A stretch of 64,000 nt of DNA from Catellatospora coxensis (lineage in GTDB: Bacteria; Actinomycetota; Actinomycetes; Mycobacteriales; Micromonosporaceae), in contig NZ_BONI01000014.1 of the NCBI RefSeq assembly GCF_016862635.1, forward strand, positions 1 to 64,000. The letters are read 5' to 3'. This document shows positions 44,919 to 61,781 of the stretch, piece after piece. The notes under the pieces are model-generated. The model did not search any database and was not told the origin of the DNA. It worked only from the letters and a program-made list of their open reading frames with translations. Every line of letters starts with the position of its first letter. Position 1 is the stretch's first letter. The position numbers and the translations under genes are program-made.

Positions 44919-45359
44919 TCAGATCAGAGTCCAGGACGTCTGGACCGGGCCGCCCTGCGCGGGATGGCAGTGCAGGCGCAGGTGCCCGCGGGTCACGCAG
45001 GCCACCGAGAACCGGCCCAGCGGGTCGGCCTCGACCCACGTGGGGCCGTCGGCGTGGTCGACGCGGATGCTGGCCGGCTGCGGCGGGACGAGCTGGCCGG
45101 TCAGCGCCGCGGTCAGCCCGGTCACCGCCACCTCCATCTCGATGGTCAGCTCGCCGGCGGTGAACGTGAACAGGTCGGGCAGGTCCTCCCCGCGCACCCC
45201 GGCCAGGTCGATCTGGCGGACGAGCTCGGCGAGCGCGGCGTCGGTGTCGCGCCAGGCCAGGCTCTCCTTGGCGAGCGCGATCAGGTGCGGCGGCACGGGG
45301 TCCATGCGTGTGGTGAGCCCGCGCAGCTCGGCGGGCAGGTCGTCGTCGTACGCGGTCAT
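44919..45359 (-). CDS. Small protein of the CHAT/subtilisin/sigma locus, unknown function
   Basis: A 146-residue soluble protein starting at ATG 45359, which overlaps the sigma factor stop (TGATG). It begins MTAYDDDLPAELRGLTTRMDPVPPHLIALAKESLAWRDTDAALAELV, a short helical start like many proteins encoded directly after sigma factors, and continues as a beta-rich domain (VEADPLGRFSVACVTRGHLRLHCH). No membrane segment or zinc-finger HxxxCxxC is present, so it is not a classic anti-sigma factor. The tight coupling makes a regulatory partner of the sigma factor likely. Confidence 0.65.
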   Translation of the reverse strand: MTAYDDDLPAELRGLTTRMDPVPPHLIALAKESLAWRDTDAALAELVRQIDLAGVRGEDLPDLFTFTAGELTIEMEVAVTGLTAALTGQLVPPQPASIRVDHADGPTWVEADPLGRFSVACVTRGHLRLHCHPAQGGPVQTSWTLI

Positions 45360-45928
45360 CAGGGGTTCAACCTCCGGCGTAACTGGTCGAGGCAGCGCGC
45401 ACGGGTCGGGCCGATGCTGCCGACGGGGATGTCCAAGGCCGCGCTGACCTCGGCGTAACTCGGTGCGGGGTCCAGCAGCAGCAGCCGCAGCACCGACTGG
45501 CACTGGCCGGGCAGCTGCCCGAACTCCCGCCACAGCACGCCGTCGCGTTCGCGGCGCAGCAGGTCGCTGTCGACCTCGGGGGCGGTGCGGTCCTGCGGTT
45601 CGAGGGTGAGCAGGTCACCGACGGGCAGGTCCCGCCCGGCGCGGCGCAGCACCGCGAGGGACTCGCGCCGGGCGGTGGTGGCCAGCCAGGAGCCGAGCCG
45701 GTCGGGTTCGCGGATCGCGCCCAGGTGCTCGACCAGGCGCAGCCAGGTGGCCTGGAAGACGTCGGCGGCGTCGGCCTGGCCGAGCCGGTGGCTGCGTGCC
45801 ACCGACCAGACCAGGCCCGAGTACCGCTCCACGATGGTGTTCCAGGCGCGCTGGCTGCCCTCGGCGGCCTGGCGCAGCAGCGCGGCGGTGTCCAATTCGG
45901 GCAGCGTGTGGGGCGGCGTCTGAGTCAT
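45359..45928 (-). CDS. Sigma-70 family (ECF-like) RNA polymerase sigma factor
   Basis: A 189-residue sigma factor with region 2 (about 25-90: NTIVERYSGLVWSVARSHRLGQADAADVFQATWLRLVEHL) and region 4 (about 125-185: PSYAEVSAALDIPVGSIGPTRARCLDQLRRRL). No regions 1 or 3 are present. ATG 45928 overlaps the subtilisin stop (ATGA), and its own stop overlaps the next gene, so the three genes are one operon. It is the only transcription factor in the injection-system locus and the natural candidate for controlling it, although a specific promoter motif could not be identified. Confidence 0.85.
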   Translation of the reverse strand: MTQTPPHTLPELDTAALLRQAAEGSQRAWNTIVERYSGLVWSVARSHRLGQADAADVFQATWLRLVEHLGAIREPDRLGSWLATTARRESLAVLRRAGRDLPVGDLLTLEPQDRTAPEVDSDLLRRERDGVLWREFGQLPGQCQSVLRLLLLDPAPSYAEVSAALDIPVGSIGPTRARCLDQLRRRLNP

Positions 45929-47103
45929 GCCAGGCCCGGGTATCCGCCGTAGGTGCGGGTCGCGGCCGCCAGCACGGCCTTGCGTGCGACCTCGGTCGAG
46001 CCGCTGCGCGCGGTGTGCTCGGCCAGCATCGCCACCACGTGCGGGGTGGCGAACGAGGTGCCGCTCCACAGCGCCCAGCCGGTCGGGAACTGGCCGTGCT
46101 TGACGAACGTGCTGGTGATGTCGGCCCCGGGCGCGGTGACGGTCACCCACGGACCGGCGTTGCTCCAGTCGCACAGCTCCTTGCCGTCGTGGGCGGCGAC
46201 GGCGACGACCTGGTCGGCCCAGGGCACGTCGGTGCCGGCGAACGCGGCGGGCCAGAACGGCCGGTCGCGCAGCCCGTCGTTGCCCGCCGCGGCGACGACG
46301 AGCCGGTCGCGGCCGGTCAGCAGCGCCGACAGGGCGGTGGCCAGCGCGAGCGGCGGCTGGTCGTCGAGGGTGTACCCGCCCAGCGACAGATTGATCAGCT
46401 TCTCGTCGGTGAGCCGGGCGAACGAGAGGATCAGGTCGGCTTCGGTGCACAGTCCGAACGTGTCCAGCACCCGCATCGCCCGTACGTCGGCCTTGCCGGT
46501 GCGGGCGCCGATGACGCCGATGATGAAGTTGGCGTGCCCGACGTCGCCGTCCATGACACCGTCGTCGTCGACGTCGGTGTCGATCTCGTAGTCGGCCGGC
46601 GCGGCGGTGTAGGCGTGCGCGGGCAGCGGGCTGTCGCGCCACACGCCGGTGTCGATGACCGCGACGCCGACCTCCTGGCCGGGTTTGCGCGGGCCGGGGC
46701 GGTCGCCGGGCTTCGGGGCCGGCTGCGGCGGGCCGAAGGGGCCGCCGTGCTCGAACGGCGTGGACACGAACACGTGGTTGGGGCTGACGACGGTGCGCTC
46801 GTCGCCGTCGCGGGCGGCGGCCTCGCGGACTCGGCGGGCGGCGGTCGGCACGTCAAGTCCGTCGGCGCGCAGGCGCAGCAGGCCGGGGGCGAGTTCGGTC
46901 TCGCCGACGCCCCGGGTGTGCCCGAGGCCGCCGAGGACGCGTTCGGCCGACGCCCGGTGGTCGGACAGGACCAGCAGCTCGTCACGGGTGTACCAGACCG
47001 GTTTGCGGTCGGGGCGGGTCTCCTGGCCGAGCCAGGGCAGCCCGGCCATGCGCCGGGCGCGGCGGTCCTGCCAGCGGTGCAGGCGATCCTGCGGCATAGC
47101 CAT
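45925..47103 (-). CDS. Intracellular S8 (subtilisin-like) serine protease
   Basis: A 392-residue subtilase. The triad is D151 (VAVIDTGV), H190 (GDVGHANFI) and S350 (GTSFATPHV), with the oxyanion Asn N275 in AAAGNDG. There is no signal peptide, so it should work inside the cell; residues 1-110 may be a propeptide or targeting region. ATG 47103 follows GGAGG with 7-nt spacing; the open frame further upstream is promoter DNA. It is divergent from the CHAT gene and leads an operon with a sigma factor. A protease cascade CHAT-subtilisin, or cleavage of a regulator, is an inference. Confidence 0.9.
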   Translation of the reverse strand: MAMPQDRLHRWQDRRARRMAGLPWLGQETRPDRKPVWYTRDELLVLSDHRASAERVLGGLGHTRGVGETELAPGLLRLRADGLDVPTAARRVREAAARDGDERTVVSPNHVFVSTPFEHGGPFGPPQPAPKPGDRPGPRKPGQEVGVAVIDTGVWRDSPLPAHAYTAAPADYEIDTDVDDDGVMDGDVGHANFIIGVIGARTGKADVRAMRVLDTFGLCTEADLILSFARLTDEKLINLSLGGYTLDDQPPLALATALSALLTGRDRLVVAAAGNDGLRDRPFWPAAFAGTDVPWADQVVAVAAHDGKELCDWSNAGPWVTVTAPGADITSTFVKHGQFPTGWALWSGTSFATPHVVAMLAEHTARSGSTEVARKAVLAAATRTYGGYPGLA

Positions 47104-47191
47104 CGTCGTTCCTCCGTCTCGTGTTGCGTCCTGCAACAGAGTGCGGCCGACGGCCTGCTGATACATCCAGATGTGTCGCAACGCTGACACT

Positions 47192-47214
47192 ACCGTCCGT
47201 GTCGATAGGACGGT
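47192..47214. promoter_or_regulatory. Inverted repeat in the subtilisin/CHAT divergent region
   Basis: ACCGTCC (47192-47198) and GGACGGT (47208-47214) form a 7-bp dyad with 9-bp spacing, 28 bp before the CHAT start. It could be a shared operator for both operons. Confidence 0.35.
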
Positions 47215-47241: not shown

Positions 47242-49803
47242 GTGTTAGCGATGGTCATGGCCGACCCGCGACGGGCCGGGGTGCTCGGCGAGCGGTTGCT
47301 GGCCCGCGCCGAACGTGACCGGGATCCCGCGGGTAGGGCGGTGTCCCTGCGCATCCTCGGCCTGGCCGCCCGTGAGCTGCAGGATCCGGCGCTGGCCGCG
47401 GCGCGGCTGCGGCGCTCGATCGCGGTCGCGGGCCGGGCCCGGCTGCCGGAGCTGGCGGCGCAGTCGCGGATGAGCCTGGCGCTGGTCCTCAACGACCTCG
47501 GCCGCCCCACCGCGGCGCTGGCCGAGATCGGCCGGGCCCTGTCGGCGCTGGACGGGCTGCCGCTGGCCAGGGCCCGGATGCAGCACGGCATCCTGCTGCG
47601 CCGGCTGGGCCGCGACGAGCAGGCCCTGGCCGCGTACACGTCGGCGCTGGCCGCCTTCCGCCGCCACGACGACCGGCTGTGGCAGGCCAGGGCGCTGATC
47701 AACCGGGGCGTGCTGCAGACCTACCGGGGCGCGTTCGCGCAGGCCCGCGCCGACCTGGGCCGGGCCGAGCAGCTGTACCGGGAGCTGGCGCTACCGGCCG
47801 CGGAGGCGCAGGCGCAGCACAACCTCGGGTTCGTGGCGGCGTCCAGCGGCGACATCGTCACGGCGCTGACCTGGTACGACAAGGCCGACGAGCATTTCCG
47901 GCGCAGCGGGTCCCGGCCCGCCGAGGCGCTGATCGACCGGGCGGAGCTGCTGCTGGCGGCGCGGCTGCTGCCCGAGGCGCACCAGACGGCGCAGGAGGCC
48001 GTCGAGCTCGCCGCCGCGGCCCGGCTCGGCACGCTGCTGCCGCAGGCCCGGCTGCTGCAGGCGCAGGCGGCGCTCGCGGCCGGTGACACCGCGGGCGCGC
48101 GCGAGGCGGCCCGGCTGGCCCGGCGCTCGTTCACCCGCCAGGAGCGCGGGCGCTGGGCCGTACACGCCGAATATCTGCAGGTCCGCGCGGCACCGCAGCG
48201 GCGCATCGCCCGGCTGCGGGCGCTCGCCGACGCGCTCGACGCCGCCGGCTGGCCCGAGCAGGCCCTCGAAGCGCGCCTGTACGCCGCCGGGAGCGGCGAC
48301 CCCGACGCGCTGGCCGACCTCGCCGGTGTTGTGCCCGGACACGGCCCGGCCCGGTTGCGCATCCGCGCCTGCCACGCCCAGGCCTTGAGCCGTCTCCACC
48401 ATGGGGACCTCGCCGGGGCCCGGCGTGCGCTGCGCCACGGGCTGCGGCTGCTCGACCAGTACCGGGCCGCGCTCGGCGCGACCGAGCTGCGGGTGCTCAG
48501 CTCCGCCGAAGGCGGCGACCTCGCCGCGCTCGGCGTACGCCTGGCCCTGTCGCAGCGCTCCGCCCGGCAGGTCCTCGCCTGGTCCGAACGCTGGCGCGCC
48601 GCCACCCTGCGCCTGCCCCCGAGCACCCCGGCCGACGACCCCGACCTGGTACGCGAGCTCGCCCAGCTGCGCCGGGTCACCGCCGAACTGGCCGGCGACT
48701 CCCTCGACGCGATCCGCCGCACCCGGCCGCTCCAACGCCAGCGCGCCTTGGAGGACGCGATCCGCCGCCGCACCTGGCGCACCGGACCCGCCGGCTCCCC
48801 GGTCGACGCCCCGGGCTCGGTCGACGAGATCACCGCCGCGCTGGGTGAGCGCGCCCTGGTCGAACTCGTCGAGCAGGACGGGCGGCTGCTCGCCGTCGTC
48901 GTCGCCGGCGGCCGCGTACGGCTGACCCCGCTGGTCGAGGCGGCCACGCTCGCCCCGGAGATCGCCGCGCTGCGGTTCGCGATGCGCCGGCTCGTGCTGC
49001 GCTACGGCTCCCCGGCGTCGCTGGCCGCCGCCGAGGCCGCCGCCCGCCACGGCCTGCGCCAGCTCGACGACTGGCTGCTGCGGCCCGTCGCCGCGCTGAC
49101 CGGCGACCGGGAGCTCGTCGTGGTCCCCACCGGTGCGCTGCAGGCCCTGCCCTGGGCGGCGCTGCCGAGCTGCGCCGGGCGGCCCGTCACCGTCGCCCCG
49201 TCCGCGACCGCCTGGGCGCGCGGCACCGCCAACCGCCGCACCGACCTCGACGAACGCTTCGTGCTCGTCGCCGCCGCCCGCCCCGACCACGCCATCGGCG
49301 AAGTGCACGCCCTCGCCGCACTCGCCCCCGGCGCGCAGCAGCTCGTCGGCCCGCAGGCCACCGTCACCGCGACCCTCGCCGCGATCGACGGGGCACGCCG
49401 CGTGCACCTGGCCGCGCACGGCGAGTTCCGCGCCGACAACCCGCTGTTCTCCCATCTCGACCTCGCCGACGGGCCGCTGACCGTGCACGACCTGACCACC
49501 CTGCGGCGCGCCCCCGACCTGGTCGTGCTGTCCGCCTGCGACACCGGCCTGTCCGCGGTGCACCCCGGCGACGAGCTGATGGGGCTGACCGCCGCGCTGC
49601 TCGGCGCGGGCGCCCGCACCCTGGTCGCCAGCACCGGACCCGTCGACGACGAGGCCACCCGCGAGCTGATGCTCGGCCTGCACCAGCGGCTGCGCGCCGG
49701 GCACGAGCCGGCCGCCGCGCTCGCCGCCGCCCAGGCCGCCGCGCCCGTCGAGCGCTGGGCGACGGCGTACAGCTTCAGCTGCTTCGGCTCCGGGGCCGCC
49801 TGA
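47242..49803 (+). CDS. TPR-CHAT domain protein (caspase-like clan CD protease)
   Basis: An 853-residue protein. The N-terminal half is a run of degenerate TPR helices (alanine/arginine rich, about 10-450). The C-terminal CHAT domain (about 520-853) has the catalytic His H726 in VHLAAHGEF and Cys C766 in LSACDTG, so it should be an active caspase-related protease (numbers from the GTG at 47242). CHAT proteases are known effectors in bacterial immunity and cell-death pathways such as Craspase. The start is uncertain: GTG 47242 or ATG 47251, because the ATG at 47234 is followed by a stop. It leads toward the CIS operon in the same direction, with 124 bp between them. Confidence 0.87.
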   Translation: MLAMVMADPRRAGVLGERLLARAERDRDPAGRAVSLRILGLAARELQDPALAAARLRRSIAVAGRARLPELAAQSRMSLALVLNDLGRPTAALAEIGRALSALDGLPLARARMQHGILLRRLGRDEQALAAYTSALAAFRRHDDRLWQARALINRGVLQTYRGAFAQARADLGRAEQLYRELALPAAEAQAQHNLGFVAASSGDIVTALTWYDKADEHFRRSGSRPAEALIDRAELLLAARLLPEAHQTAQEAVELAAAARLGTLLPQARLLQAQAALAAGDTAGAREAARLARRSFTRQERGRWAVHAEYLQVRAAPQRRIARLRALADALDAAGWPEQALEARLYAAGSGDPDALADLAGVVPGHGPARLRIRACHAQALSRLHHGDLAGARRALRHGLRLLDQYRAALGATELRVLSSAEGGDLAALGVRLALSQRSARQVLAWSERWRAATLRLPPSTPADDPDLVRELAQLRRVTAELAGDSLDAIRRTRPLQRQRALEDAIRRRTWRTGPAGSPVDAPGSVDEITAALGERALVELVEQDGRLLAVVVAGGRVRLTPLVEAATLAPEIAALRFAMRRLVLRYGSPASLAAAEAAARHGLRQLDDWLLRPVAALTGDRELVVVPTGALQALPWAALPSCAGRPVTVAPSATAWARGTANRRTDLDERFVLVAAARPDHAIGEVHALAALAPGAQQLVGPQATVTATLAAIDGARRVHLAAHGEFRADNPLFSHLDLADGPLTVHDLTTLRRAPDLVVLSACDTGLSAVHPGDELMGLTAALLGAGARTLVASTGPVDDEATRELMLGLHQRLRAGHEPAAALAAAQAAAPVERWATAYSFSCFGSGAA

Positions 49804-49890
49804 CCTGCGTCGGAAATCAGCGCCCGACCCGTCACGCAGCTGACAGGCAGCGGTGTATCACCGCCCGTGACCGGACGCTCTGTCCTGCGA

Positions 49891-49927: not shown

Positions 49928-50620
49928 ATGCGGTATCACGAGGACCACGGGCCGTTGGCCCGGGCGTCCGCGCTGCTGCTGGCCAGCCTGGCCGAAGTGG
50001 ACGTCGCGGTGCGGGTCGAGCACCCGGCCGCATCCGTCGGCGTGCAGTCCGGCGCCTTCGGCGGACCGTGGGTGGCCGTGTGGCCGTACGCGGTCCTGCC
50101 CGAGACGCTGCCCGCCCGCCCCGGTGACGCGCTGCGCCTGCGGGTCAGGTTCCTGCTGCACGCCGACGGCCCCGAGGCCACCGCGATCGAGGCCCTCGAC
50201 CGCATCCTCACCGGCGGCGTGCCGTACCTGCTCGCCGAGCCGGTCCCGGACACGCTGTGGACCGCGCTCGGGGCACGGCTGCGGGTCGCGCTGCTCTGCG
50301 AGGTCGCGGTGCACGTCACCACGGCCGCCCCGCGCATCCCCCGGGTGACCCAGCCGGGCCGGCTGGACACGGTGTCGCTGCGGCGGCTCACCGGCCGGGT
50401 GCAGACCCCCGGCGGGGTGGCGCTGGTCGGCATGCGGGTCTCCGCCGCCGACGGCACCGCGGCGTCGTACACCGACACCCGGGGCCACTTCGAGCTGCCC
50501 GTCGCCGCCGACCGGCCGGTGCGCCTGTCGGTCGCCGGTCGCGGGCTGCTGCTGTCCGCCGAGGTCGCGGCCGTCTCGGCCGAACCCGTCGTCATCACCT
50601 GCGAGATCCAGGAGGTCTAG
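49928..50620 (+). CDS. DUF4255 (Afp16/Pvc16-like) tail-terminator protein with extra C-terminal beta domain
   Basis: A 230-residue protein. Residues about 8-150 resemble the DUF4255 tail-terminator/cap family of CIS loci (first helix, then beta-rich part with VAVWPYAVLPE and RLRVRFLLHADG). Residues about 153-230 look like a carboxypeptidase-regulatory/CnaB-like beta-sandwich (LTGRVQTPGGVALVGMRVSAADG). The cap protein ends the sheath-tube stack; the added domain is not part of the core fold. Start ATG 49928 with GGAGG. First gene of the CIS operon. Sequence similarity to the family is modest. Confidence 0.7.
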   Translation: MRYHEDHGPLARASALLLASLAEVDVAVRVEHPAASVGVQSGAFGGPWVAVWPYAVLPETLPARPGDALRLRVRFLLHADGPEATAIEALDRILTGGVPYLLAEPVPDTLWTALGARLRVALLCEVAVHVTTAAPRIPRVTQPGRLDTVSLRRLTGRVQTPGGVALVGMRVSAADGTAASYTDTRGHFELPVAADRPVRLSVAGRGLLLSAEVAAVSAEPVVITCEIQEV

Positions 50621-50622
50621 CA

Positions 50623-51840
50623 ATGCCTGTGTACTCCTCACCCGGCATCTACGTCGAGGAGGTGTCCGGTGGCAGCAGGCCGATCGAGTCGGTCGGCACC
50701 AGCACCGCCGGATTCGTCGGCGCCGCCCCGCTCGCCGACGCGCGCCGCAACGAGGCGGTCGCGGTCAACAGCTGGTCGGAGTTCGTCCGCGTGTTCGTCG
50801 GCGACGCCACCACCAGCACGCCGCTGTCGCGGGCCGTGTACGGCTTCTTCGACAACGGCGGCGGCCGCTGCTACGTCGTCAACATCGCCCCCGGCGAGCC
50901 GCTGGCCGGCAAGGGCCGCCAGCGCAGCGGCCTGCGGCTGCTGGAGGCGATCGACGAGGTCGCCATCGTCGCCGCGCCCGGATACACCGACGCGCTGTCG
51001 TACGAGGACCTGCTGTCGCACTGCGAGCTGATGGGCGACCGGATGGCCATCCTCGACGGGCCGGAGCACACCGGCGACGTCGAGCGGCTCACCCGCGTCG
51101 GCGGCGCGACCCCGGCCAAGCCCCCGGCGAAGAAGGGCCCGGCCGATGGCGACGCCGCCCCGGCCGAGGACAACAGCGGGCTGCGGCCGCGCCAGTCCGA
51201 CTACGGCACCTTCTACGTGCCGTGGCTGGTCGTGCGCGACCCGCTGACCGGCGAGGTCGTCAACACCCCGCCCAGCGGCCACGTCGCCGGCGTGTGGGCG
51301 CGCACCGACACCCTGCGCGGCGTGCACAAGGCCCCGGCCAACGAGCCGGTGCGCGGCGCGGTCGACCTGTCGTACCGGGTCACCAAGGTCGAGCAGGACG
51401 TGCTCAACCCGGCCGGGGTCAACTGCATCCGGCACTTCCCGGCCGAGGGCATCCGCATCTGGGGCGCCCGCACCCTGGCCGCCGCCGGCAGCGAATGGCG
51501 CTACCTCAACGTGCGCCGCCTGTTCAACATGCTCAAGGAGTCCATCGGCGACGGCACCCGCTGGATCGTGTTCGAGCCGAACGACACCCTGCTGTGGAAG
51601 TCGATCCGCCGCGACGTCAGCGCGTTCCTCACCCGCGTGTGGCGCGACGGCGCGCTGCAGGGGCGCTCGCCGCAGGAGGCGTTCTTCGTCAAGTGCGACG
51701 AGGAGACCAACCCCGCCGACGTCCGTGATGCGGGCCAGGTCGTGACCATGATCGGCATCGCGCCGGTCAAGCCCGCCGAGTTCGTCATCTTCAAGATCAG
51801 CCAGTCCGCCGGTGCCGGCGGCGACCAGGCAGGAGCCTGA
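50623..51840 (+). CDS. CIS contractile sheath protein
   Basis: A 405-residue phage tail-sheath protein. The start MPVYSSPGIYVEEVSGGSRPIESVGTSTAGFVG is the sheath signature, as is the C-terminal half (RRDVSAFLTRVWRDGALQG, DAGQVVTMIGIAPVKPAEFVIFKIS) that builds the sheath handshake. A charged insert around 160-200 (PAKPPAKKGPADGD) is probably a flexible surface loop. Only one sheath gene is present, unlike the two or three of PVC/Afp clusters. ATG 50623 has GGAGG upstream. Confidence 0.95.
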   Translation: MPVYSSPGIYVEEVSGGSRPIESVGTSTAGFVGAAPLADARRNEAVAVNSWSEFVRVFVGDATTSTPLSRAVYGFFDNGGGRCYVVNIAPGEPLAGKGRQRSGLRLLEAIDEVAIVAAPGYTDALSYEDLLSHCELMGDRMAILDGPEHTGDVERLTRVGGATPAKPPAKKGPADGDAAPAEDNSGLRPRQSDYGTFYVPWLVVRDPLTGEVVNTPPSGHVAGVWARTDTLRGVHKAPANEPVRGAVDLSYRVTKVEQDVLNPAGVNCIRHFPAEGIRIWGARTLAAAGSEWRYLNVRRLFNMLKESIGDGTRWIVFEPNDTLLWKSIRRDVSAFLTRVWRDGALQGRSPQEAFFVKCDEETNPADVRDAGQVVTMIGIAPVKPAEFVIFKISQSAGAGGDQAGA

Positions 51841-51841
51841 C

Positions 51842-52330
51842 ATGCCCGAGGTGACCGCCACCCCCGCCGCCCAGCCCGGCAACCTGGTGGACCCGTATCG
51901 CGCGTACAACTTCAAGCTGCTCATCAACAACGTCACCGAGGGCCACTTCACCGAGGTCGGCGGCCTGGGCATCAAGGTCGAGACCATCTCGTACCGCGAA
52001 GCCGGCAACAACTCCGTCGTGCGCGCCATCCCCGGCCGCGTCACGTACGCCCCGGTGACCCTGCGCTTCGGCCTGACCTCCTCCCTCGAACTGTGGGAGT
52101 GGCTGATGACCGCCGTGGAGGGCAAGGTCAGTCGCCGCAACGTCTCCATCGTCATGCTCGACAGCTCCGGCTCGGCCGAAGCCCTGCGCTGGAACCTCGT
52201 CAACGCCTGGCCCCAGGAGTGGTACGGCTCGCCGCTCGACGCGATGAGCCGCGAACTCGCGGTGGAGACCCTGGTGCTGGCACACGACGGCATCCAGCGG
52301 GAGACCAGCAATGTCGGCGCGGCTGCGTGA
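51842..52330 (+). CDS. CIS inner tube protein (gp19-like)
   Basis: A 162-residue T4 gp19/Hcp-like tube protein. The pattern DPYRAYNFKLLINNVTEGHFTEVGGLGIKVETISYREAG, then LEWLMTAVEGK-type and a final segment is diagnostic. ATG 51842 lies just after the sheath stop; upstream codons belong to the sheath. One tube gene only. The gene overlaps the next by 20 bp. Confidence 0.95.
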   Translation: MPEVTATPAAQPGNLVDPYRAYNFKLLINNVTEGHFTEVGGLGIKVETISYREAGNNSVVRAIPGRVTYAPVTLRFGLTSSLELWEWLMTAVEGKVSRRNVSIVMLDSSGSAEALRWNLVNAWPQEWYGSPLDAMSRELAVETLVLAHDGIQRETSNVGAAA

Positions 52331-53654: not shown

Positions 53655-54280
53655 CCTTTCTCGTCGACGCCACCGGCGAGCGCATCGACTGCCTGGTCAA
53701 CCCCGAGACCCTGGTGGTACGCCGCCTCGCCGGGGTGCGCCCCGCGGCGCTGCCCGGGGCCGTGGTCGGCACCGGGGTCGACGACGCGCTCCTGTTCACC
53801 GGCGGCGGCCGCACCGAGCTGGTCCTCGACCTGCTGTTCGATGTGGACCTGGTCGAGCAGGCGCACCGGCCCGACGACGTACGCCGGCTCACCGGTCGGC
53901 TGTGGCAGCTGGCCGAGAACGGGCAGGGCCGCCCGCCGCTGGTACGCCTGGTCTGGGGCAAGACCTGGAACCTGCCCGGCGTGGTGGTGAACGTGGCCGA
54001 GCGCCTCGACGCCATCGACGCCACCGGCACCCCGCGCCGGTCCTGGCTGCGGCTCAAGCTGATCCGCAGCGAGGGCGAGCCCGCCGCGCCACCCGCCCCG
54101 ACGGCGGCGAGCGCGGTGCAGGCCACCGGCGACGGCTCCGGCGGCGGCGGGGCCCGGTTCGACCTGCTGGCCGCCGAGGCGCTCGGCGACCCGACCCGGT
54201 GGCGGGAGCTGGCCGAGCACAACGGCATCGACAACCCCCTGGCCGTACGCGCCGGGACCGTCCTCGGAGTCCCGTCATGA
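53642..54280 (+). CDS. CIS tube-adaptor protein with LysM-like C-terminus (Afp7-like)
   Basis: A 212-residue protein. Residues 1-150 resemble the CIS tube/spike-adaptor family, with a gp19-like fold hint in IDCLVNPETLVVRRLAG and RTELVLDLLFDVDL and the RPPLVRLVWGKTW strand. Residues about 165-212 are a LysM-like end (DLLAAEALGDPTRWRELAEHNGIDNPLAVRAGTVLGVP). In other CIS this protein joins the tube to the spike. The GTG start at 53642 is inside the end of the preceding gene. The stop overlaps the next ATG. Confidence 0.88.
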   Translation: MERIAFLVDATGERIDCLVNPETLVVRRLAGVRPAALPGAVVGTGVDDALLFTGGGRTELVLDLLFDVDLVEQAHRPDDVRRLTGRLWQLAENGQGRPPLVRLVWGKTWNLPGVVVNVAERLDAIDATGTPRRSWLRLKLIRSEGEPAAPPAPTAASAVQATGDGSGGGGARFDLLAAEALGDPTRWRELAEHNGIDNPLAVRAGTVLGVPS

Positions 54281-55761
54281 TCATTCCTGCCGTGTCGGTG
54301 CGCCTCGACGGCGCACCCGTGCCGGGCCGGGTCCTGTCGGCCCGCGTCACCCAGCGCATCGGCCTGCCCGCCCAGGCCGAACTCACCATGCACACCCCCG
54401 CGGGCTGGCCGTTCGGGGCACGCCTGGAACTCGACGTCGACGGCGAACCGCTGTTCGACGGCGAGGTCGGCACCGTCGAGCTGACCCGCGGGCCGGGCTC
54501 GGAGACCGGCTGGACGGTCGTCGCCCACGACCTGCTGCACCGGCTGCGCGCCAGGCAGCAGCCGCGGGTCTTCACCGGCGTCACCCTGGCCGACCTGGCC
54601 CGCGAGCTCACCGCCGGCCTCGACCTGACCGTGCGCTGCCCCGACCCGGGGCCGCCGCTGGAGCGGCTGCTCCAGCACCGCGCCACCGACTGGGACCTGC
54701 TCGCCCGCGCCGCCGCCCGGCTCGGCCGCTACCCGGTGCTCGACGGCCGGACCCTGGTCCTGGAGACGCTGTGCCCGCGCGGGTCGGCGCTGCCGCTGAA
54801 GTTCGGCGACACGCTGTGGCAGTGCCGCGTCGAGGGCCACGCCGACCGGGCCGTCGGGGGAGTGGCCACCTATGGCTGGCACCCGGGCGGGGAGTTCACC
54901 ACCGGTCGGGCCGCCGCGCCCGGATACCAACCAGGGCCTGCTGTTTCGCTGCCCGGACTCGGCGGAGACGGTGACCGGGCGCTCATCGACCAGCCCGCCG
55001 GCCTGCAAGCCGAAGCCGCCCAGGCGGCCCTGGACCGGGCGGCGGCCCGGGTGCTGTGCGTCAGCGGCACCGCGCAGGGCGACCCGGCGCTGCGGCCCGG
55101 CCGCGCGGTCGAGATCGCGGGCGTCGGCGACGCCGTCGACGGCACCTATCCCGTGTGCACGGCCGTACACACCGTCGACGTCGACGGCTACCGCACCGTG
55201 TTCGGCACCGAACCACCCGACAGCCCCACGCAGCCGAGCGCCGCCGCGATCGCCCTGGGCCGGGTCACCGGGGTCGACGACCCCGACGGCCGCGGCCGCG
55301 TCCAGGTCATCCTCCCCGGCCACGGCGACCTCGACCTCGGCTGGCTGCCCGTGCTGTGCCCCGGCGCCGGGCCCGGCAAGGGCATCGTCGCACTGCCCGA
55401 CCCCGGCGACCTCGTCGTGCTTGCCCTGCCGCATGAGGACCCCGCCGAGGCGATCGTGCTCGGCGCCGTCTTCGGCGCGTTGTCGCCGCCCGACAGCGGC
55501 GTCAGCGGCGGACGCGTACGCCGGTGGACCCTGCACAGCCCCGAAGGGCAGAAGGTCCTCGTCGACGACGGCGACAAGTCGATCACCCTGTCCAACGCCG
55601 ACGGCAGCGCCCTCGAACTCGCCCCCGGCAAGGTCCGGCTGCTGGCCCGCACCGACCTGGTCATCGAGGCCCCCGGGCACCGGATGACCATCCGCGCCGC
55701 CAACGTCGACTTCGAACGCGCGCTCATCCCCGGCCTGCCGACCGAGGTGATCCCGGGATGA
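54277..55761 (+). CDS. CIS spike protein (VgrG / Afp8-like)
   Basis: A 494-residue spike: an N-terminal phage late-control gene D (gp27-like) part (about 1-330), then a gp5-like OB-fold beginning LGRVTGVDDPDGRGRVQVILPGHGDLDLGWLPVLCPGAG (about 330-420) and a short C-terminal beta-helix region ending in TIRAANVDFERA. No extra effector domain follows, so cargo would have to travel in the tube or on the tip. ATG 54277 overlaps the LysM gene stop (ATGA). Confidence 0.92.
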   Translation: MIIPAVSVRLDGAPVPGRVLSARVTQRIGLPAQAELTMHTPAGWPFGARLELDVDGEPLFDGEVGTVELTRGPGSETGWTVVAHDLLHRLRARQQPRVFTGVTLADLARELTAGLDLTVRCPDPGPPLERLLQHRATDWDLLARAAARLGRYPVLDGRTLVLETLCPRGSALPLKFGDTLWQCRVEGHADRAVGGVATYGWHPGGEFTTGRAAAPGYQPGPAVSLPGLGGDGDRALIDQPAGLQAEAAQAALDRAAARVLCVSGTAQGDPALRPGRAVEIAGVGDAVDGTYPVCTAVHTVDVDGYRTVFGTEPPDSPTQPSAAAIALGRVTGVDDPDGRGRVQVILPGHGDLDLGWLPVLCPGAGPGKGIVALPDPGDLVVLALPHEDPAEAIVLGAVFGALSPPDSGVSGGRVRRWTLHSPEGQKVLVDDGDKSITLSNADGSALELAPGKVRLLARTDLVIEAPGHRMTIRAANVDFERALIPGLPTEVIPG

Positions 55762-56096
55762 GACTCATCGACTCGTCGTCCGACGTGCGCTGCGACCACG
55801 ACGGCAAGGTCGCCAACAACCCGTCCCAGCACTGGGTCGAGATCGCCGGGCACCCCGTGCTCGTCGACGACGACCCCCAGGGCCGCGCCGTCGCCCGCTG
55901 CCCCAACATCGGCGCGACCATGAAGCCCTGCGTGAAGACCCTGCGCGTGTTCACCGGCTACAGCGACTGGATCCGCATCGACGGCGACGCCGTGGTCCTC
56001 GACAGCCTCGACGGCCTCACCGACGGCACCGTGCCCGGCACCGTCCACTACCGCGTACGCATCCCCGGCCAGACCTTCGTGGAGGCGACCTCATGA
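55758..56096 (+). CDS. PAAR-like spike-tip protein
   Basis: A 112-residue beta-rich protein with C12, H14, C48 and C58 well placed to bind one metal ion at the tip (RCDHDGKV and ARCPN...KPC). Its position after VgrG and before gp25, and its size, match PAAR-like tips of eCIS (Afp10), though the PAAR motif itself is not obvious. ATG 55758 overlaps the spike stop. A metal-sharpened tip is inferred. Confidence 0.7.
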   Translation: MRLIDSSSDVRCDHDGKVANNPSQHWVEIAGHPVLVDDDPQGRAVARCPNIGATMKPCVKTLRVFTGYSDWIRIDGDAVVLDSLDGLTDGTVPGTVHYRVRIPGQTFVEATS

Positions 56097-56488
56097 CCCC
56101 GACCTCACTGCGCTTCACCGAAGGCGACGGCATCGTCACCTCCGCCGCCGGCCGGGTCGCGCTCGTCCACGGCGACGACGCCATCCGCCAGGCCATCATC
56201 CTGCTGCTCGGCACCGTGCCCGGCGAACGCCTCATGCGCCCCGAGTACGGCTCCCACCTGCACCGGCTGCTGTTCGCGCCCAACGACCAGACCACCGCCG
56301 GCCTCGCCATCCACTACGTGCGCCACGCCCTCGAACGCTGGGAGCCGCGCATCGACATCGAGCAGGTCGACGCCGACCCCGACCCCGACAACGCGTCCCG
56401 GCTCAACGTGCACCTGCGCTACCGGGTCCGGCAGACGCTGGCCGCCGGCGTCCTCGACTACCCCCTCGACCTCGGAGAACCGTCATGA
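56093..56488 (+). CDS. CIS baseplate wedge protein (gp25/Afp9-like)
   Basis: A 131-residue GPW/gp25 protein that nucleates sheath assembly on the baseplate. The hallmark is AIRQAIILLLGTVPGERLMRPEYGSHLHRLLF (about 31-62) with the conserved E-R-x-x-x-P-E-Y-G core, followed by HALERWEPRIDIEQV. ATG 56093 overlaps its neighbours at both ends. Confidence 0.93.
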   Translation: MTPTSLRFTEGDGIVTSAAGRVALVHGDDAIRQAIILLLGTVPGERLMRPEYGSHLHRLLFAPNDQTTAGLAIHYVRHALERWEPRIDIEQVDADPDPDNASRLNVHLRYRVRQTLAAGVLDYPLDLGEPS

Positions 56489-59019
56489 TCCCCGTGCCGA
56501 ACCTCGACGACCGCAGATTCGACGACCTGGTCGCCGAAGCCCGCGACCGGGTACGCCGCTCCTGCCCGGACTGGACCGACCTGTCCGTCCACGACCCCGG
56601 CGTCGCCCTGATCGAGGCGTTCGCGTACCTGACCGAGGTCATGCTGTACCGGCTCAACCGGCTGCCGGAGAAGGCATACCTGGAGTTCCTGAACCTGCTC
56701 GGCGTCTCCCGCCGACCACCCGCCGCCGCGTGGGCCGAGCTGACGTTCACCCGCACCGGCGCCGAAACCGGCCGCATCGCGATCCCCGCCGGCACCCGCG
56801 TCGCCGCCGCCCGCGGCGCCGACCCGCAACCGGTCCTGTTCACCACCACCGTCCCGGCCGTCATCGCCGAAGGCGAGACCGAGACCCGGGTACGCGCCTA
56901 CCACTGCGAACTCGTCGACGGCGAACTGCTCGGCCTCGGCACCGGCCTGCCCGGCCTGGTCCTGCGCGCCGACCGGGCCCCGCTGGCCAACACCGGCGAA
57001 CCCCTGGAGGTGCTGCTCGGCGTCCAGGCGACCGGGCCCGTCACCGGCGCGGCCCGCGAGCACGACGGCCGCACCTTCGAGATCTGGCAGCGCGTCGAGA
57101 CCTTCGCCGGCCTCGGCCCCGCCGACCGCGCCTACCTGCTCGACCCGGCCGCCGGGACGGTCACGTTCGCGCCCGCCCTCGACGGCGGCACCGTGCCCGG
57201 CGCGGTCCCGGCCGCCCACCGCGAGATCCGCCTCTGGTACCGCGTCGGCGGCGGCGCGTCCGGCAACGTCGCCGCGAACACCCTCACCGCGCTGCGCGAC
57301 CAGATCCCGGGCGTACGGGTCACCAACGCCGAAGCGGCCCGTGGCGGCCGGGACATCGAGCAGGTCGACGCCGCCGCGCGCCGCGGCCCGTACGAGCTGT
57401 TCAGCCTCCACCGCGCCGTCACCGCCCGCGACTTCGAGCTGCTCGCGACCGCCGGCTCCCCGGCCGTCGCCCGCGCCCGCGCGTTCACCCGCGCCTCCAT
57501 GTGGTCGTTCGCCCGCCCCGGCGAGGTCGAGGTGACCCTGGTCCCGTACGTGCCCGAGGCGGCCCGCCCCGGCTGGCGGCTGCCCGTCGCCGCGCTCGCC
57601 GAACGCCAGCTCGACGAGGTGCGCCTGCACACCCAGGCCGACCTGGACCGCCGCCGCGCCCTGGGCACCTCGGTCACCACCACCTGGGCCCGCTACAAGT
57701 CCGTCGCCGTCAAGGGCCGGGTCGTCGTCGGCCGCCAGGAGGACGTCGACGCCGTACGCCGCCGCATCCACGACCGCCTCCACCAGACCATCAGCCCGCT
57801 GCCCGCCCCCGCGACCGTCGAAGGCTGGTCCTTCGGCGAGCCGCTGCGCGCCTCCAACGTGTACCGGATCCTGGAGCAGGCCGAACCCGGCGTGCGCTAC
57901 GTCGACGACGTGCGCTTCGTGCTCGAACACGCGCCCAGCCGCGACGTCAGCTCCATCGCCGCCGACGGCTACCAGCCCGGCACCTGGTACGCCGGCGGCG
58001 GCGAGCAGGTCTTCCGGTCCACCAACGACGGTGAGGGCTGGGAGCTGGTCACCGTGTTCCCCGGCGAGGTCGTGCGCCAGGTCGTGCCCGCACCGGTGTC
58101 CGACCGGCCCGGCGTCGTCGCCCGCCCCGGCGCGGTCGCCGTCGTCACCAACTCCGACGAGGGCGGCTCCTGCGTGCACGTCTCCGCCGACCTGGGCGAG
58201 ACCTGGCGCAAGCTGACCGAGATCGACGCCGTGGTCCTGGAAGCGGCGTGGATCGACCGCGAGGAGTCGGTGTCGCTGCTGCTGGCCACCGACGTCGGCC
58301 TGTACGAGATGTCGCTGCTCGACGGAGCGGTCCCGCTGCAGATCATCGTCGACAGCAAGGACCAGGACCGCGGCTTCAACTCCGTGCGCACCTTCGTCTC
58401 CGAACGCGGCGTGTGGGGCGTGGCCCTGGCCGCCGAGACCACCTACGGCGTCTACCTGTCCACGGCCGGCGGCCGCCAGGGCACCTTCGCCCACGTCGGC
58501 CTCAACGGCGTCGACACCCGCGCCCTGTCTGTGCAGCTCGACGGCCCGGACACGATCCTCTGGGTCGGCACCGGCACCACCGACCCGCGAAAGCCCGGCA
58601 AGGGCTGCTACCGCGCCCGGCTGTTCGAGGCCGACGTGCGCTGGCAGGAGATGTCCGCCGGGTGGACCGGCGGCACCTGCTGGGGCCTCGACTTCGTCGA
58701 CGGCACGGCGTACGCCGCCAGCCAGAGCGGGGGAGTGCTCCAGCTCGACACCACGGCCGCCACGCCGCAGTGGGAGTCCCCGTCGGTCAACTGCGGCCTG
58801 CCGCTGCGCGACCGGACCCGCTTCGAACCCGTACGCACCATCGCCGGCGGCAGCCACGTGTTCGCCGGCGGCAACCGCGGCACCCACGTCCTCGCCGCAC
58901 CGGGCCGGTGGCGCTCCGCAGCCGACACCGAACTGCGCCAGCTCGTCACCATCCCGCCCACCTGGCTGCTCGTCTCCGGCGAGCACGACATCGAGGTGGT
59001 GACCGAAGATGCGCCGTGA
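56485..59019 (+). CDS. Baseplate J-like protein fused to a BNR/Asp-box beta-propeller
   Basis: An 844-residue fusion. Residues about 1-480 are a baseplate assembly (gp6/Afp11-like) protein: LSVHDPGVALIEAFAYLTEVMLYRLNRLPEKAYLEFLNLLG, then GTR.., and the RAFTRASMWSFARPGEVEVTLVPYVPE region. From about 496 to the end is a beta-propeller with Asp-box motifs STNDGEGW (512-519) and SADLGETW (567-574), as in sialidases and sortilin-like repeats. Placing a propeller on the wedge would put a ligand- or substrate-binding module on the baseplate rim. The next gene starts 11 bp before the stop. Confidence 0.88.
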   Translation: MIPVPNLDDRRFDDLVAEARDRVRRSCPDWTDLSVHDPGVALIEAFAYLTEVMLYRLNRLPEKAYLEFLNLLGVSRRPPAAAWAELTFTRTGAETGRIAIPAGTRVAAARGADPQPVLFTTTVPAVIAEGETETRVRAYHCELVDGELLGLGTGLPGLVLRADRAPLANTGEPLEVLLGVQATGPVTGAAREHDGRTFEIWQRVETFAGLGPADRAYLLDPAAGTVTFAPALDGGTVPGAVPAAHREIRLWYRVGGGASGNVAANTLTALRDQIPGVRVTNAEAARGGRDIEQVDAAARRGPYELFSLHRAVTARDFELLATAGSPAVARARAFTRASMWSFARPGEVEVTLVPYVPEAARPGWRLPVAALAERQLDEVRLHTQADLDRRRALGTSVTTTWARYKSVAVKGRVVVGRQEDVDAVRRRIHDRLHQTISPLPAPATVEGWSFGEPLRASNVYRILEQAEPGVRYVDDVRFVLEHAPSRDVSSIAADGYQPGTWYAGGGEQVFRSTNDGEGWELVTVFPGEVVRQVVPAPVSDRPGVVARPGAVAVVTNSDEGGSCVHVSADLGETWRKLTEIDAVVLEAAWIDREESVSLLLATDVGLYEMSLLDGAVPLQIIVDSKDQDRGFNSVRTFVSERGVWGVALAAETTYGVYLSTAGGRQGTFAHVGLNGVDTRALSVQLDGPDTILWVGTGTTDPRKPGKGCYRARLFEADVRWQEMSAGWTGGTCWGLDFVDGTAYAASQSGGVLQLDTTAATPQWESPSVNCGLPLRDRTRFEPVRTIAGGSHVFAGGNRGTHVLAAPGRWRSAADTELRQLVTIPPTWLLVSGEHDIEVVTEDAP

Positions 59020-59470
59020 CGCCATCGCCGCCCTGCTGCCTGCCGCCTACCAGCGGGCCATGCACCCGAGCGGGGTGCTGTGGGCGCTGCTCGACGTGAT
59101 GGAGGGCCTGCACTCCTCCGGCGAGGCCCGCCTCGCGACCGTCGAGGACCTGTTCCACCCGTACCGCTGCCCGCCCCAGCTGGTGCCGTTCCTGGCCCGC
59201 TGGGTCGCCGTCGACCACCTCGGCCACGGCCGGGACCTGGTCGCGCACGGCACCGCCCTGGCCCAGTCCCGCGGCACCCGCGAAGGGCTGCGGGCCGCGG
59301 TGACCCTGGCCACCGGCCTGCCCGACATCGAGATCGAGGAGTCGGCCGACCGGCCGTTCCACCTGATCGTACGCATCCCCGCGGGCAGTGACCTGCTCGA
59401 ACGCGTCCGGCACATCGTCGAGCTGGACAAGCCTGCCGCCACCACCTTCGAAATGGGAGAACTGCCGTGA
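59009..59470 (+). CDS. CIS tail protein, P2 tail-I/gp7-like
   Basis: A 153-residue phage-tail-protein-like wedge component: AALLPAAYQRAM at the start, DLFHPYRCPPQLVPFLARWVAVD, and RGTREGLRAAVTLATGLPDIEIEE, which matches the tail-protein-I family found after baseplate J in phages and CIS. It is much shorter than Afp12, suggesting a simplified baseplate. The stop overlaps the GTG of the next gene. Confidence 0.8.
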   Translation: MRRDAIAALLPAAYQRAMHPSGVLWALLDVMEGLHSSGEARLATVEDLFHPYRCPPQLVPFLARWVAVDHLGHGRDLVAHGTALAQSRGTREGLRAAVTLATGLPDIEIEESADRPFHLIVRIPAGSDLLERVRHIVELDKPAATTFEMGELP

Positions 59471-60573: not shown

Positions 60574-60574
60574 C

Positions 60575-61024
60575 ATGCCCGCGCTCACCCGGGGACAGAA
60601 GATCCTCGCCGCGGTCGCGGTGCTGATCGTCGCGCTGTACGTCACCGGCGTCGCCACCGCCGACGACGGCACGATGACCGACCCGACCGACAACGCCCTG
60701 GTCCAGCAGCTCGGCGACTGGTTCGGCGACCCCGACCCCGTCGACCCGGCGGACCTGTCCGCGCCCTGCCTGACCGACGGCGTACTCGTCATCGAGGCAG
60801 GCTGCGTGCTCACCGTCGCGCCGGCCGACAGCGACCTGCGCGAAGTCGAACTGCGCCCTGACGGCCCGCTGCGGCTGCTCACCCGCGCCCCGCACGACGA
60901 CACGATCCTCGACCGCGACGTGCCCGCCGGGGAACCGATCCGCGTCGCCGTCGACGACCAGGGCGTCGACATCAGCCTGACCTGCGACAAGTGCACCGTC
61001 ACCCTCGGAGGTAGTGATGGATAG
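60575..61024 (+). CDS. Small membrane-anchored protein, CIS operon
   Basis: A 149-residue protein with an N-terminal signal anchor (about 8-28, ILAAVAVLIVALYVTGVATA) and an acidic extracytoplasmic domain with four cysteines (PCL, AGC, TCDKC), possibly two disulfides. I do not recognise the family. It begins 1 nt after the PASTA gene stop and overlaps the next gene by 8 bp. Confidence 0.7.
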   Translation: MPALTRGQKILAAVAVLIVALYVTGVATADDGTMTDPTDNALVQQLGDWFGDPDPVDPADLSAPCLTDGVLVIEAGCVLTVAPADSDLREVELRPDGPLRLLTRAPHDDTILDRDVPAGEPIRVAVDDQGVDISLTCDKCTVTLGGSDG

Positions 61025-61781
61025 GCTGCGCACCCCGTTCTTCTTCGTCGCGCTCGTCGCCCTCGGCCTCGTCGTCGCCGTCGAGACCAGCAGTTCATTC
61101 CTGCTCGGCCTCACCACCCCGGCACTGGGCACCGCCACCGAACTCGGCGCCGACGTGCCACCGGGCGTCGCCGAACGGCCCGGCGGCATCGCCATCAGCT
61201 ACCTCGCACTCATCGACGTGGTGCTGCTCGGCACGGCCGTGCTCATGGGCGTGGCGATCCTGGCCTCCAAGCGCCTGCACGCCCGCGCCCAGGGCCTGGC
61301 GACCCTGATCGGGGCGATCATCCTGATCGTCACGGCGCTGGTGCTGCTGTTCGTCGCCGTCGCCAAGCTGATCCTGATGGTGTCGCTGCTGCTGGCGTTC
61401 CCGTTCGGCACGATCGTCTACCTGATCCTGTTCGGGTCCTTCCCACGCGGCGAGGCGGCGGTCGTGCTGTCGCTGATCATGTTCCTGAAGGTGGTCGCGA
61501 TCGCCTGCCTGATCATCGCCCAGCAGCGCTTCCTGCAGAACAAAGGCCTCGTCGCCATGATGATCACGTCGCTGCTCGGCAACGTCGTCGCCGTGTTCCT
61601 GCACGGGATCGTGCCCGGGATCCTGGTCAGCATCACCGACGCCATCGCCGGCATCGTGTTCGCGATCGTCGGGATCGTCTGGGCGATCGTGCTGATCGTC
61701 GGCTCGATCCCGGCGATGATCCGGGCGGTTCAGGTCACCGTGGAGAGCGCCAAGCAGCTGAAAGCCGCCGCGGCCACCTGA
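61017..61781 (+). CDS. Multi-pass membrane protein, end of CIS operon
   Basis: A 254-residue very hydrophobic protein with about six to seven membrane segments (near 8-30, 58-80, 90-150, 155-180, 185-230) and a short amphipathic tail ending SAKQLKAAAAT. I recognise no family. ATG 61017 has GGAGG with 5-nt spacing; the GTG at 61014 is less favoured. It is the last gene before two strong terminators, and its tight coupling to the CIS genes suggests a membrane role in the same system. Confidence 0.7.
   Translation: MDRLRTPFFFVALVALGLVVAVETSSSFLLGLTTPALGTATELGADVPPGVAERPGGIAISYLALIDVVLLGTAVLMGVAILASKRLHARAQGLATLIGAIILIVTALVLLFVAVAKLILMVSLLLAFPFGTIVYLILFGSFPRGEAAVVLSLIMFLKVVAIACLIIAQQRFLQNKGLVAMMITSLLGNVVAVFLHGIVPGILVSITDAIAGIVFAIVGIVWAIVLIVGSIPAMIRAVQVTVESAKQLKAAAAT

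What the first reader, a model, noticed from the sequence alone, without database searches (positions are those of the whole stretch)
44919..61781. Compact contractile injection system without ATPase, tape measure or fibre, joined to a CHAT/subtilisin/sigma module
Seen directly: one sheath, one tube, LysM adaptor, VgrG-like spike, PAAR-like tip, gp25, baseplate J, tail-I and a DUF4255-like cap lie in one overlapping operon (49928-59470), followed by three membrane proteins and two terminators. The bases between the CHAT gene and the terminators are almost all coding, so no AAA+ ATPase, helical tape measure or tail fibre is hidden here. The divergent and upstream genes are a TPR-CHAT protease, an intracellular subtilisin and an ECF-like sigma factor. 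Known families: classical PVC/Afp clusters carry an AAA+ ATPase and several sheath and tube paralogues; Streptomyces has cytoplasmic CIS linked to cell death. Inferred: a CIS coupled to caspase-like and subtilisin-like proteases, possibly an intracellular death or defence device.
Basis: partly seen in the sequence, partly recalled or inferred. Interest (0 to 1): 0.75.

Follow-up and report, generated by a model that had tools for sequence, protein, structure and literature searches.

The report
Protease-switched sigma factor arms injection machine
A soil actinomycete carries a stripped-down phage-tail-like injection machine whose genes appear to be switched on by a neighbouring sigma factor that travels with two proteases, one of them caspase-like, which suggests a protease-triggered stress or suicide device that can be tested directly.

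Summary
Operon 49928-61781 encodes a compact contractile injection system (CIS): cap, sheath, tube, LysM adaptor, spike, gp25, baseplate J, tail-I, three membrane proteins. It lacks the eCIS ATPase, whose winged-helix domain was not found elsewhere in this genome. One correction: the gene between tube and LysM (52311-53654) encodes a low-complexity protein with conserved ends, a candidate tape measure or lumen protein.

The compact CIS is a widespread lineage; most loci examined, including 27 of 27 from g4 (Micromonospora), have no CHAT/subtilisin/sigma genes beside it. In Catellatospora, Rhizocola, Allorhizocola and unnamed genus g10 the four-gene module (CHAT, S8, ECF sigma, X) sits beside it in 10 of 10 closely related loci. 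In Dactylosporangium vinaceum another copy abuts the other end; in Actinopolymorpha alba sigma, X and CHAT lie upstream.

New result: the S8-sigma-X and CIS operons share a predicted ECF promoter, TGTATCA-N17-CTCTGT. The searched form YGTATCA-N17-CTCTG occurs exactly twice in the 9.35 Mb genome, at these two operons. Best reading: a protease-controlled sigma switch arms a membrane-docked CIS. Co-regulation is well supported by sequence; proteolytic trigger, docking and cell death are inferred.

The parts
44919..45359 (-). X: 146-aa soluble protein, predicted helical N-terminus plus beta-sandwich; candidate regulator (anti-sigma?) of the sigma factor
   Evidence: present wherever the sigma gene is in the module copies fetched; fold model pLDDT 81, no PDB match at E 0.001
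45359..45928 (-). ECF-type sigma-70 factor (189 aa)
   Evidence: TIGR02937 E 1.1e-19, Sigma70_r2
45925..47103 (-). S8 subtilisin-like protease, first gene of S8-sigma-X operon
   Evidence: PF00082 E 2.5e-18; Asp, His and Ser motifs present
47136..47165 (-). Predicted ECF promoter of S8-sigma-X: TGTATCA-N17-CTCTGT
   Evidence: motif in 9 of 10 CIS-linked and 19 of 19 other fetched module copies
47242..49803 (+). TPR-CHAT caspase-like protease, divergent from S8
   Evidence: PF12770 E 2.3e-41, TPR_12; His and Cys motifs present
49854..49883 (+). Predicted ECF promoter of the CIS operon: TGTATCA-N17-CTCTGT
   Evidence: 10 of 10 CIS+module loci of the clade; one of two genome-wide hits of YGTATCA-N17-CTCTG in G000
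49928..50620 (+). Cap protein (Afp16/Pvc16-like) with C-terminal carboxypeptidase-regulatory-like domain
   Evidence: fold match to PVC, Afp and S. coelicolor caps; hhalign to Pvc16_N set
50623..51840 (+). Contractile sheath, 405 aa
   Evidence: PF17482, PF04984; best PDB matches 8bky/9gtp and 8bl4/9gts
51842..52330 (+). Inner tube (T4 gp19-like), single copy
   Evidence: PF06841 E 5.6e-38
52311..53654 (+). Low-complexity, Pro/Ala-rich protein with basic helix-like N-terminus and conserved C-terminus (WPxL ... QQEG/EQxG); candidate tape measure / lumen protein
   Evidence: 42 of 43 family loci; 64 of 65 named loci have an ORF filling the slot
53642..54280 (+). Tube-initiator / LysM adaptor (Afp7-like)
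   Evidence: PF19266 E 2.4e-10
54277..55761 (+). VgrG/gpD-like spike
   Evidence: PF04717, PF05954
55758..56096 (+). 112-aa PAAR-like tip candidate with invariant C12, H14, C48, C58
   Evidence: alignment of 18 of 43 homologues; no profile or PDB match
56093..56488 (+). gp25 baseplate wedge
   Evidence: PF04965 E 2.4e-25
56485..59019 (+). Baseplate J protein with a long C-terminal extension (weak Sortilin-Vps10 match, possibly a propeller)
   Evidence: PF04865; only PDB match 9gtp_1K E 1.8e-67; PF15902 E 0.14
59009..59470 (+). Tail-I baseplate protein
   Evidence: PF09684
59467..60573 (+). Single-pass membrane protein: N-terminal domain, TM 133-162, PASTA domain; at the position of the CisA/tail-fibre gene; candidate membrane dock
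   Evidence: PF03793; hydropathy; in 29 of 30 g4/g39 loci the match ends by residue 170, so chiefly the N-terminal domain is shared
60575..61024 (+). Small membrane-anchored or secreted protein (M2)
   Evidence: hydropathy; conserved in the block
61014..61781 (+). Polytopic membrane protein (M3), last gene of the operon
   Evidence: hydropathy; conserved in the block
61794..61879 (+). Two terminator-like hairpins
   Evidence: inverted repeats of 15 and 17 bp

Best explanation
It is a compact, ATPase-less CIS controlled by a protease-associated ECF sigma switch. The sigma factor recognises TGTATCA-N17-CTCTGT and switches on its own S8-sigma-X operon and the 13-gene CIS operon (the shared motif is shown in sequence; that this sigma binds it is inferred). 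The CHAT gene has no strict copy of the motif, so it is likely the standing sensor. On a stress or invader signal it, alone or with S8, cleaves or displaces X and frees sigma (inferred, by analogy with Csx29-Csx30-CASP-sigma). The CIS then assembles in the cytoplasm around the low-complexity lumen protein, docks on the cell's own membrane through the PASTA membrane protein, and fires through the envelope (inferred, by analogy with CisA and Streptomyces CIS). With no loading ATPase found and no conserved effector gene recognised, the puncture itself or the lumen protein is the likely payload, most probably killing the producing cell.
For: (1) X through M3 is one conserved block in 10 of 10 loci of the clade while flanking genes mostly differ. 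(2) In the genus the close S8 orthologue (82-100% identity) and compact baseplate J occur in the same 7 of 11 genomes; the other 4 have only remote S8 matches. (3) YGTATCR-N16-18-STC lies upstream of the CIS operon in 10 of 10 and of S8 in 9 of 10; 0 of 33 other compact loci have it on the plus strand within 3.5 kb upstream of the sheath. YGTATCA-N17-CTCTG has 2 hits in G000, both here; over 15 genomes 20 of 30 hits are predicted sites, against 2 for the reversed pattern. (4) YGTATCR lies within 170 bp upstream of S8 in 19 of 19 other fetched copies, against 45 of 4680 control windows, as expected for autoregulation. (5) Other pairings: in D. vinaceum the module abuts the other end of the CIS (CHAT and M3 match ends 24 bp apart) and its CHAT falls outside the clade of the ten; A. 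alba has sigma-X-CHAT upstream. (6) CHAT His/Cys motifs in 22 of 22 module copies, all three S8 motifs by regex in 26 of 29. (7) No WHD match in 12 of 20 compact-CIS genomes, this one included; ATPase match in 0 of 42 compact and 6 of 10 comparison loci, and 0 of 80 named loci.
Against: No expression or binding data. The degenerate letters were set after looking at sequences they are then counted in. A 30-mer comparison of the two promoter regions in 6 of 11 genomes was not above shuffles. The looser GACA-N8-YGTATCA gives 33 hits in 15 genomes, 21 predicted, against 16 for its reversed control, so its other hits are background. L040 lacks the S8 site; G100's CIS site misses the strict form; D. 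vinaceum has only a degenerate CIS site (AGTATTT-N17-CTCTTC, read). X has no detectable anti-sigma domain. Most compact CIS loci lack the module. Linked genes are lost together, so co-occurrence is not independent of linkage. D. vinaceum rows are long branches whose place the tree tool calls unsure. Eight of 20 genomes do have a WHD match; five of those were not examined. Nothing in sequence shows death rather than attack on neighbours.
Confidence: 0.5

Rival explanations
1. Regulated compact CIS used outward: the sigma module senses stress or rivals and the membrane-docked CIS fires out of the cell into neighbours, T6SS-like, with effectors encoded elsewhere. CHAT and S8 only set expression.
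For: Same promoter evidence. Membrane-bound haloarchaeal CIS act this way (PMC11566945, passages read). In two genomes a third copy of the promoter precedes a neighbouring 376-aa gene, a possible cargo. A second compact CIS in G042 has an eCIS_core protein beside it.
Against: No toxin or immunity gene recognised inside the block; flanking genes mostly differ between genomes.
Confidence: 0.25
2. CHAT and S8 are payloads of the CIS, loaded and injected as proteolytic effectors.
For: Adjacency and co-conservation.
Against: In 18 of 18 other fetched module copies no CIS gene was matched in the 20 kb held, yet sigma (in 15 of them) and the promoter (18) are kept; S8 overlaps the sigma gene; no loading ATPase found, and PVC without Pvc15 lack payload (PMC11495950, passages read).
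Confidence: 0.07
3. Chance or hitchhiking: an unrelated CHAT/S8/sigma conflict island landed next to a CIS in one ancestor, and the promoter similarity is coincidental.
For: Module and CIS each occur alone; most compact CIS lack the module.
Against: Two genome-wide hits, both at the two operons; kept in 10 of 10 loci; other pairings in D. vinaceum and A. alba.
Confidence: 0.1
4. Decayed prophage tail or ordinary tailocin with no link to CIS biology.
For: PHROG tail families match sheath, tube and baseplate proteins.
Against: Open, tightly packed genes conserved in dozens of genomes; sheath and baseplate J closest to CIS structures; the 10 phage records listed of 2514 are at 25-29% identity, and all are under 60%; no fibre or tape-measure family matched.
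Confidence: 0.03

Closest known systems
Streptomyces coelicolor CIS (eCIS subtype IId) with CisA
   Same: Nearest solved sheath and baseplate J (8bl4/9gts, 8bky/9gtp, 9gtp_1K; 9gts is titled S. coelicolor, that 9gtp is the same system is recalled); no fibre or typical tape measure; bitopic membrane protein encoded at the fibre position
   Different: Shorter sheath (405 against 534-539 aa), one tube instead of two, no eCIS ATPase, no match to the CisA-like protein of a canonical locus, and the sigma/CHAT/S8 module
Type III-E CRISPR CASP system (Csx29 TPR-CHAT, Csx30, CASP-sigma; PMC10028731, passages read)
   Same: [quoted passage not shown] weak Csx29 profile match to the CHAT protein (E 4e-4, far under its cut-off)
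   Different: X gave no family match; subtilisin added; predicted output includes a CIS; Cas7-11 was not looked for
Haloarchaeal membrane-bound CIS (PMC11566945, passages read)
   Same: CIS with a membrane protein next to the cluster and no tape measure found
   Different: Membrane protein and host; the paper's figure legend mentions an ATPase
[quoted passage not shown] PMC11126660, listing only)
   Same: A tape-measure-like protein may be lumen content and payload; homologues are reported in Micromonospora
   Different: Not compared by sequence here; the 52311 protein is low-complexity with no family match

Membership tests
CIS (contractile injection system) | Sheath, tube, tube initiator, spike, gp25, baseplate J, tail-I and cap in one cluster without a capsid | tested here: met
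   none of the 17 products compared matches a capsid or terminase family in Pfam
eCIS subtype IId (Streptomyces type) | AAA+ ATPase (Cis15/Afp15) | tested here: not met
   none among the products; WHD absent from genome; 0 of 42 compact and 0 of 80 named loci, against 6 of 10 comparison loci
eCIS subtype IId (Streptomyces type) | Two tube paralogues | tested here: not met
   one tube gene in the block
eCIS subtype IId (Streptomyces type) | Placement inside IId in a tree of Afp8/Afp11 | not tested
   no reference set of subtypes at hand; nearest PDB chains only
eCIS subtype IId (Streptomyces type) | CisA homologue | tested here: inconclusive
   a probable CisA counterpart from canonical locus L075 matches 4 of 10 comparison loci and 0 compact ones; CisA itself was not used; the PASTA protein is a positional analogue
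Type VI secretion system i-iii | TssJLM trans-envelope complex and ClpV | tested here: not met
   no such Pfam family among the 17 products; rest of the genome not searched
CASP-like sigma switch | TPR-CHAT protease with His and Cys motifs next to an ECF sigma factor | tested here: met
CASP-like sigma switch | CHAT cleaves a sigma inhibitor | not testable with these tools
   X is only a candidate; fold search inconclusive
CASP-like sigma switch | Cas7-11 and crRNA | not tested
   not searched for; no claim that this is a CRISPR system

The most novel reading that the evidence does not exclude
A caspase-like protease and a subtilisin gate an ECF sigma factor that arms a self-directed, ATPase-less contractile syringe: a bacterial regulated-death pathway in which the executioner is a CIS rather than a pore protein, put together more than once from the same parts.
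Probability: 0.3. Interest if true: 0.88.

Novelty: new variant of a known kind. Interest (0 to 1): 0.7.

Why it matters
How Streptomyces-type cytoplasmic CIS are triggered is open. Here a likely controller is encoded next door and shares a rare promoter with the CIS, so the trigger chain (CHAT, S8, X, sigma, CIS) can be tested gene by gene. It would also show caspase-like proteases wired to a contractile machine, and a cross-phylum CIS lineage without the loading ATPase, with a low-complexity protein in the tape-measure slot.

Tried and rejected
Ungapped 30-mer comparison of S8 and CIS upstream regions in 6 of 11 genomes: not above 60 shuffles each, so the promoter case rests on conservation and genome-wide rarity. 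I first took TGTATCA as a -10 element; the second shared block CTCTGT, 17 bp downstream in both operons, makes it a -35. PAAR homology of 55758-56096: not supported. X as a known anti-sigma fold: not supported. General conservation of the module beside compact CIS: rejected. Phage relic: rejected. PADLOC gave only weak, general matches (subtilase E 3e-7, BovA 3e-6, PD-T4-6 to the PASTA protein 7e-6). Literature for a CIS linked to CHAT, caspase or sigma genes was searched, and for an ATPase-less or Micromonosporaceae CIS; the listings (titles and abstract starts) show none, but most subscription papers are not held.
Full report
OBSERVATION. Window 44919-61781 holds, on the minus strand, S8-sigma-X (47103 down to 44919, overlapping ends) and, on the plus strand, a divergent TPR-CHAT gene followed by a 13-gene operon 49928-61781 whose junctions overlap or are 1-2 bp apart. 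Pfam identifies the S8 peptidase, CHAT, sheath, tube, CIS_tube, spike, gp25, baseplate J, tail-I and PASTA proteins; the sigma factor matches the ECF model. The cap is supported by fold. The PAAR-like label has no profile support. Two hairpins follow the operon.

COMPACT LINEAGE. A sheath search in 250 genomes of the family found 153 with a match. In 58 of them, by my count of the listing, the best match spans nearly the whole query at 62% identity or more; the others listed are partial or weaker. I fetched 52 stretches: 40 of the 57 full-length genomes besides the window's, 2 further compact loci (L073, L081) and 10 others for comparison. With the window this makes 43 compact loci. They keep the order cap, sheath, tube, low-complexity gene, LysM, spike, PAAR-like, gp25, baseplate J, tail-I, membrane genes, with M2 and M3 not detected in L073 and L081. 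A tblastn with the ATPase of one comparison locus (AAA plus WHD) matches 6 of the 10 comparison loci and 0 of the 42 fetched compact loci. A scan of named genomes with the PAAR-like protein gave 166 relatives, 80 kept, with record titles from Actinomycetota, Myxococcota, Chloroflexota and Acidobacteriota; several are the same genomes as above, and 28 of the 80 stretches are shorter than 20.3 kb. None of the 80 matches the ATPase. A Deinococcus plasmid has a similar cluster. The WHD domain was absent from 12 of 20 compact-CIS genomes, the window's included; among the 8 with it, G118, G009 and G061 have it at or near their second, canonical cluster, and the other 5 were not examined. AAA proteins without WHD were not searched genome-wide. 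Nearest solved relatives of sheath and baseplate J are in the 9gtp/9gts set, of which 9gts is titled S. coelicolor.

THE GENE IN THE TAPE-MEASURE SLOT. In 42 of 43 compact loci an ORF of 298-661 aa fills the gap between tube and LysM, with a basic, helix-like N-terminus, a long Pro/Ala/Gly-rich stretch and a C-terminus with WPxL and EQ- or QQ-G; in L052 the script picked a wrong frame. Among the named loci 65 have both neighbours and 64 have such an ORF (298-605 aa); 44 of these match a stricter C-terminal pattern. That it is disordered is judged from composition. It is a candidate tape measure or lumen protein.

MODULE AND CIS. CHAT, S8, sigma and X lie beside the CIS in 10 of 10 loci of one clade (the window's genus, g10, g19, g42). 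A second, more distant compact CIS in G042 (L073) and 30 of 30 loci of g4 and g39 have no CHAT in the stretch held. Among the 80 named loci 10 have a CHAT match: 8 of this clade, D. vinaceum and A. alba. All 11 genomes of the genus have some S8 match, but close orthologues (82-100%) only in 7, the same 7 with the compact baseplate J. S8 relatives at 51-56% identity occur in 15 further genomes of 250, at 23 places; I fetched 19 of the 23. Of these 9 have all four genes (L086, L094-L101), 7 show no CHAT and 3 no sigma or X; only L086, D. vinaceum, has CIS genes in the 20 kb held. There the module abuts the far end of the CIS, convergent, match ends 24 bp apart. In the CHAT tree it falls with other copies of its genus, outside the clade of the ten (100/100), and its sigma pairs with L101 (98/96); the S8 tree agrees with weaker support, and these are long branches. 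In A. alba sigma (cut by the stretch's end), X and CHAT lie directly upstream, in line with the CIS; the best S8 in that genome is 32%. G112 has a different 1295-aa CHAT gene just upstream of its compact CIS, in which the script found no His motif. CHAT genes number 2-20 per genome in the 12 searched genomes with one beside the CIS and 0-5 in the other 8.

SHARED PROMOTER. Aligning the ten loci showed one motif in both intergenic regions. GACA-N8-TGTATCA has two exact hits in the whole genome, at these two sites; its reversed control has one. With Y for the first T, over 15 genomes, both predicted sites are hit in 9 of 10 module genomes and the CIS site in the tenth: 21 of 33 hits, reversed control 16. 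TGTATCA is followed after 17 bp by CTCTGT in both operons: YGTATCR-N16-18-STC precedes S8 in 9 of 10 and the CIS in 10 of 10, and S8 in 19 of 19 other copies; in 33 other compact loci it is absent from the plus strand of the 3.5 kb upstream of the sheath; overall 26 matches in 2.1 Mb of fetched strand. YGTATCA-N17-CTCTG gives 30 hits in 15 genomes, 20 at predicted sites, 3 beside a neighbouring gene in G118 and G133, 7 elsewhere; reversed control 2; the four genomes without module and CIS have 1 hit in all. The degenerate letters were fixed after seeing these sequences, so the counts for the 19 copies are descriptive; the 7-mer occurs in 45 of 4680 control windows. The single-genome 30-mer test was negative. 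D. vinaceum has a degenerate CIS site only, read by eye.

MECHANISM. Shown: protease motifs, co-conservation, shared motif, absent eCIS ATPase, a single-TM protein at the position where S. coelicolor encodes CisA, whose cytoplasmic N-terminus is predicted to interact with CIS components (PMC12237407: introduction and passages read). In 29 of 30 g4/g39 loci the homology of this membrane protein ends by residue 170, just past the TM segment, so the N-terminal side is the shared part, which fits a docking face. Inferred: sigma drives both operons; CHAT and S8 relieve inhibition of sigma, as Csx29 does by cleaving Csx30 (PMC10028731, passages read); docking and firing at the own membrane. PVC particles without their ATPase assemble but lack payload (PMC11495950, passages read), which fits a machine whose puncture is the effect. 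X as the inhibitor is a guess from position.

KNOWN OR NEW. Streptomyces CIS lack fibre and typical tape measure (PMC10066040, passage read), so that part is known. [quoted passage not shown] whether compact clusters are in it I could not check. No listing or 100 describes a CIS with CHAT, S8 and sigma genes or this promoter.

Noticed in passing
L037:69-1262 and the matching place in L036 (G118, G133): A third copy of the predicted promoter lies just upstream of a 376-aa gene with no Pfam match next to X; possible regulon member or cargo.
   Followed up: partly
L045 and L047 (= L132) cap genes: A profile of X also matches the cap protein in two genomes (E 2e-6 to 4e-6), so X and the cap may share a beta-sandwich domain.
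   Followed up: no
g4 (Micromonospora) loci, e.g. L053:4910-6779: The slot upstream of the cap is filled by another conserved set: an LppM-domain protein and two small genes; 32 of 80 named loci match the LppM protein.
   Followed up: partly
L073 (G042): Second compact CIS in the same genome, with an eCIS_core protein downstream and a lantibiotic dehydratase upstream.
   Followed up: no
L186, Deinococcus sp. AJ005 plasmid p96k: A compact CIS cluster with cap-like and PASTA genes on a plasmid.
   Followed up: partly
G133:C34 and G133:C43: Sheath, S8, X and baseplate J appear on two contigs with equal scores: duplication or assembly artefact.
   Followed up: no
L088-L091, L093, L102, L103: S8-sigma-X copies with no CHAT match in the stretch, keeping the same promoter; two of these genomes (G064, G115) and G044 also have CHAT-S8 pairs without sigma and X nearby (L092, L104, L105).
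   Followed up: no
window 40773-42695: GH5 cellulase with CBM35 and F5/8 domains upstream of the block.
   Followed up: no
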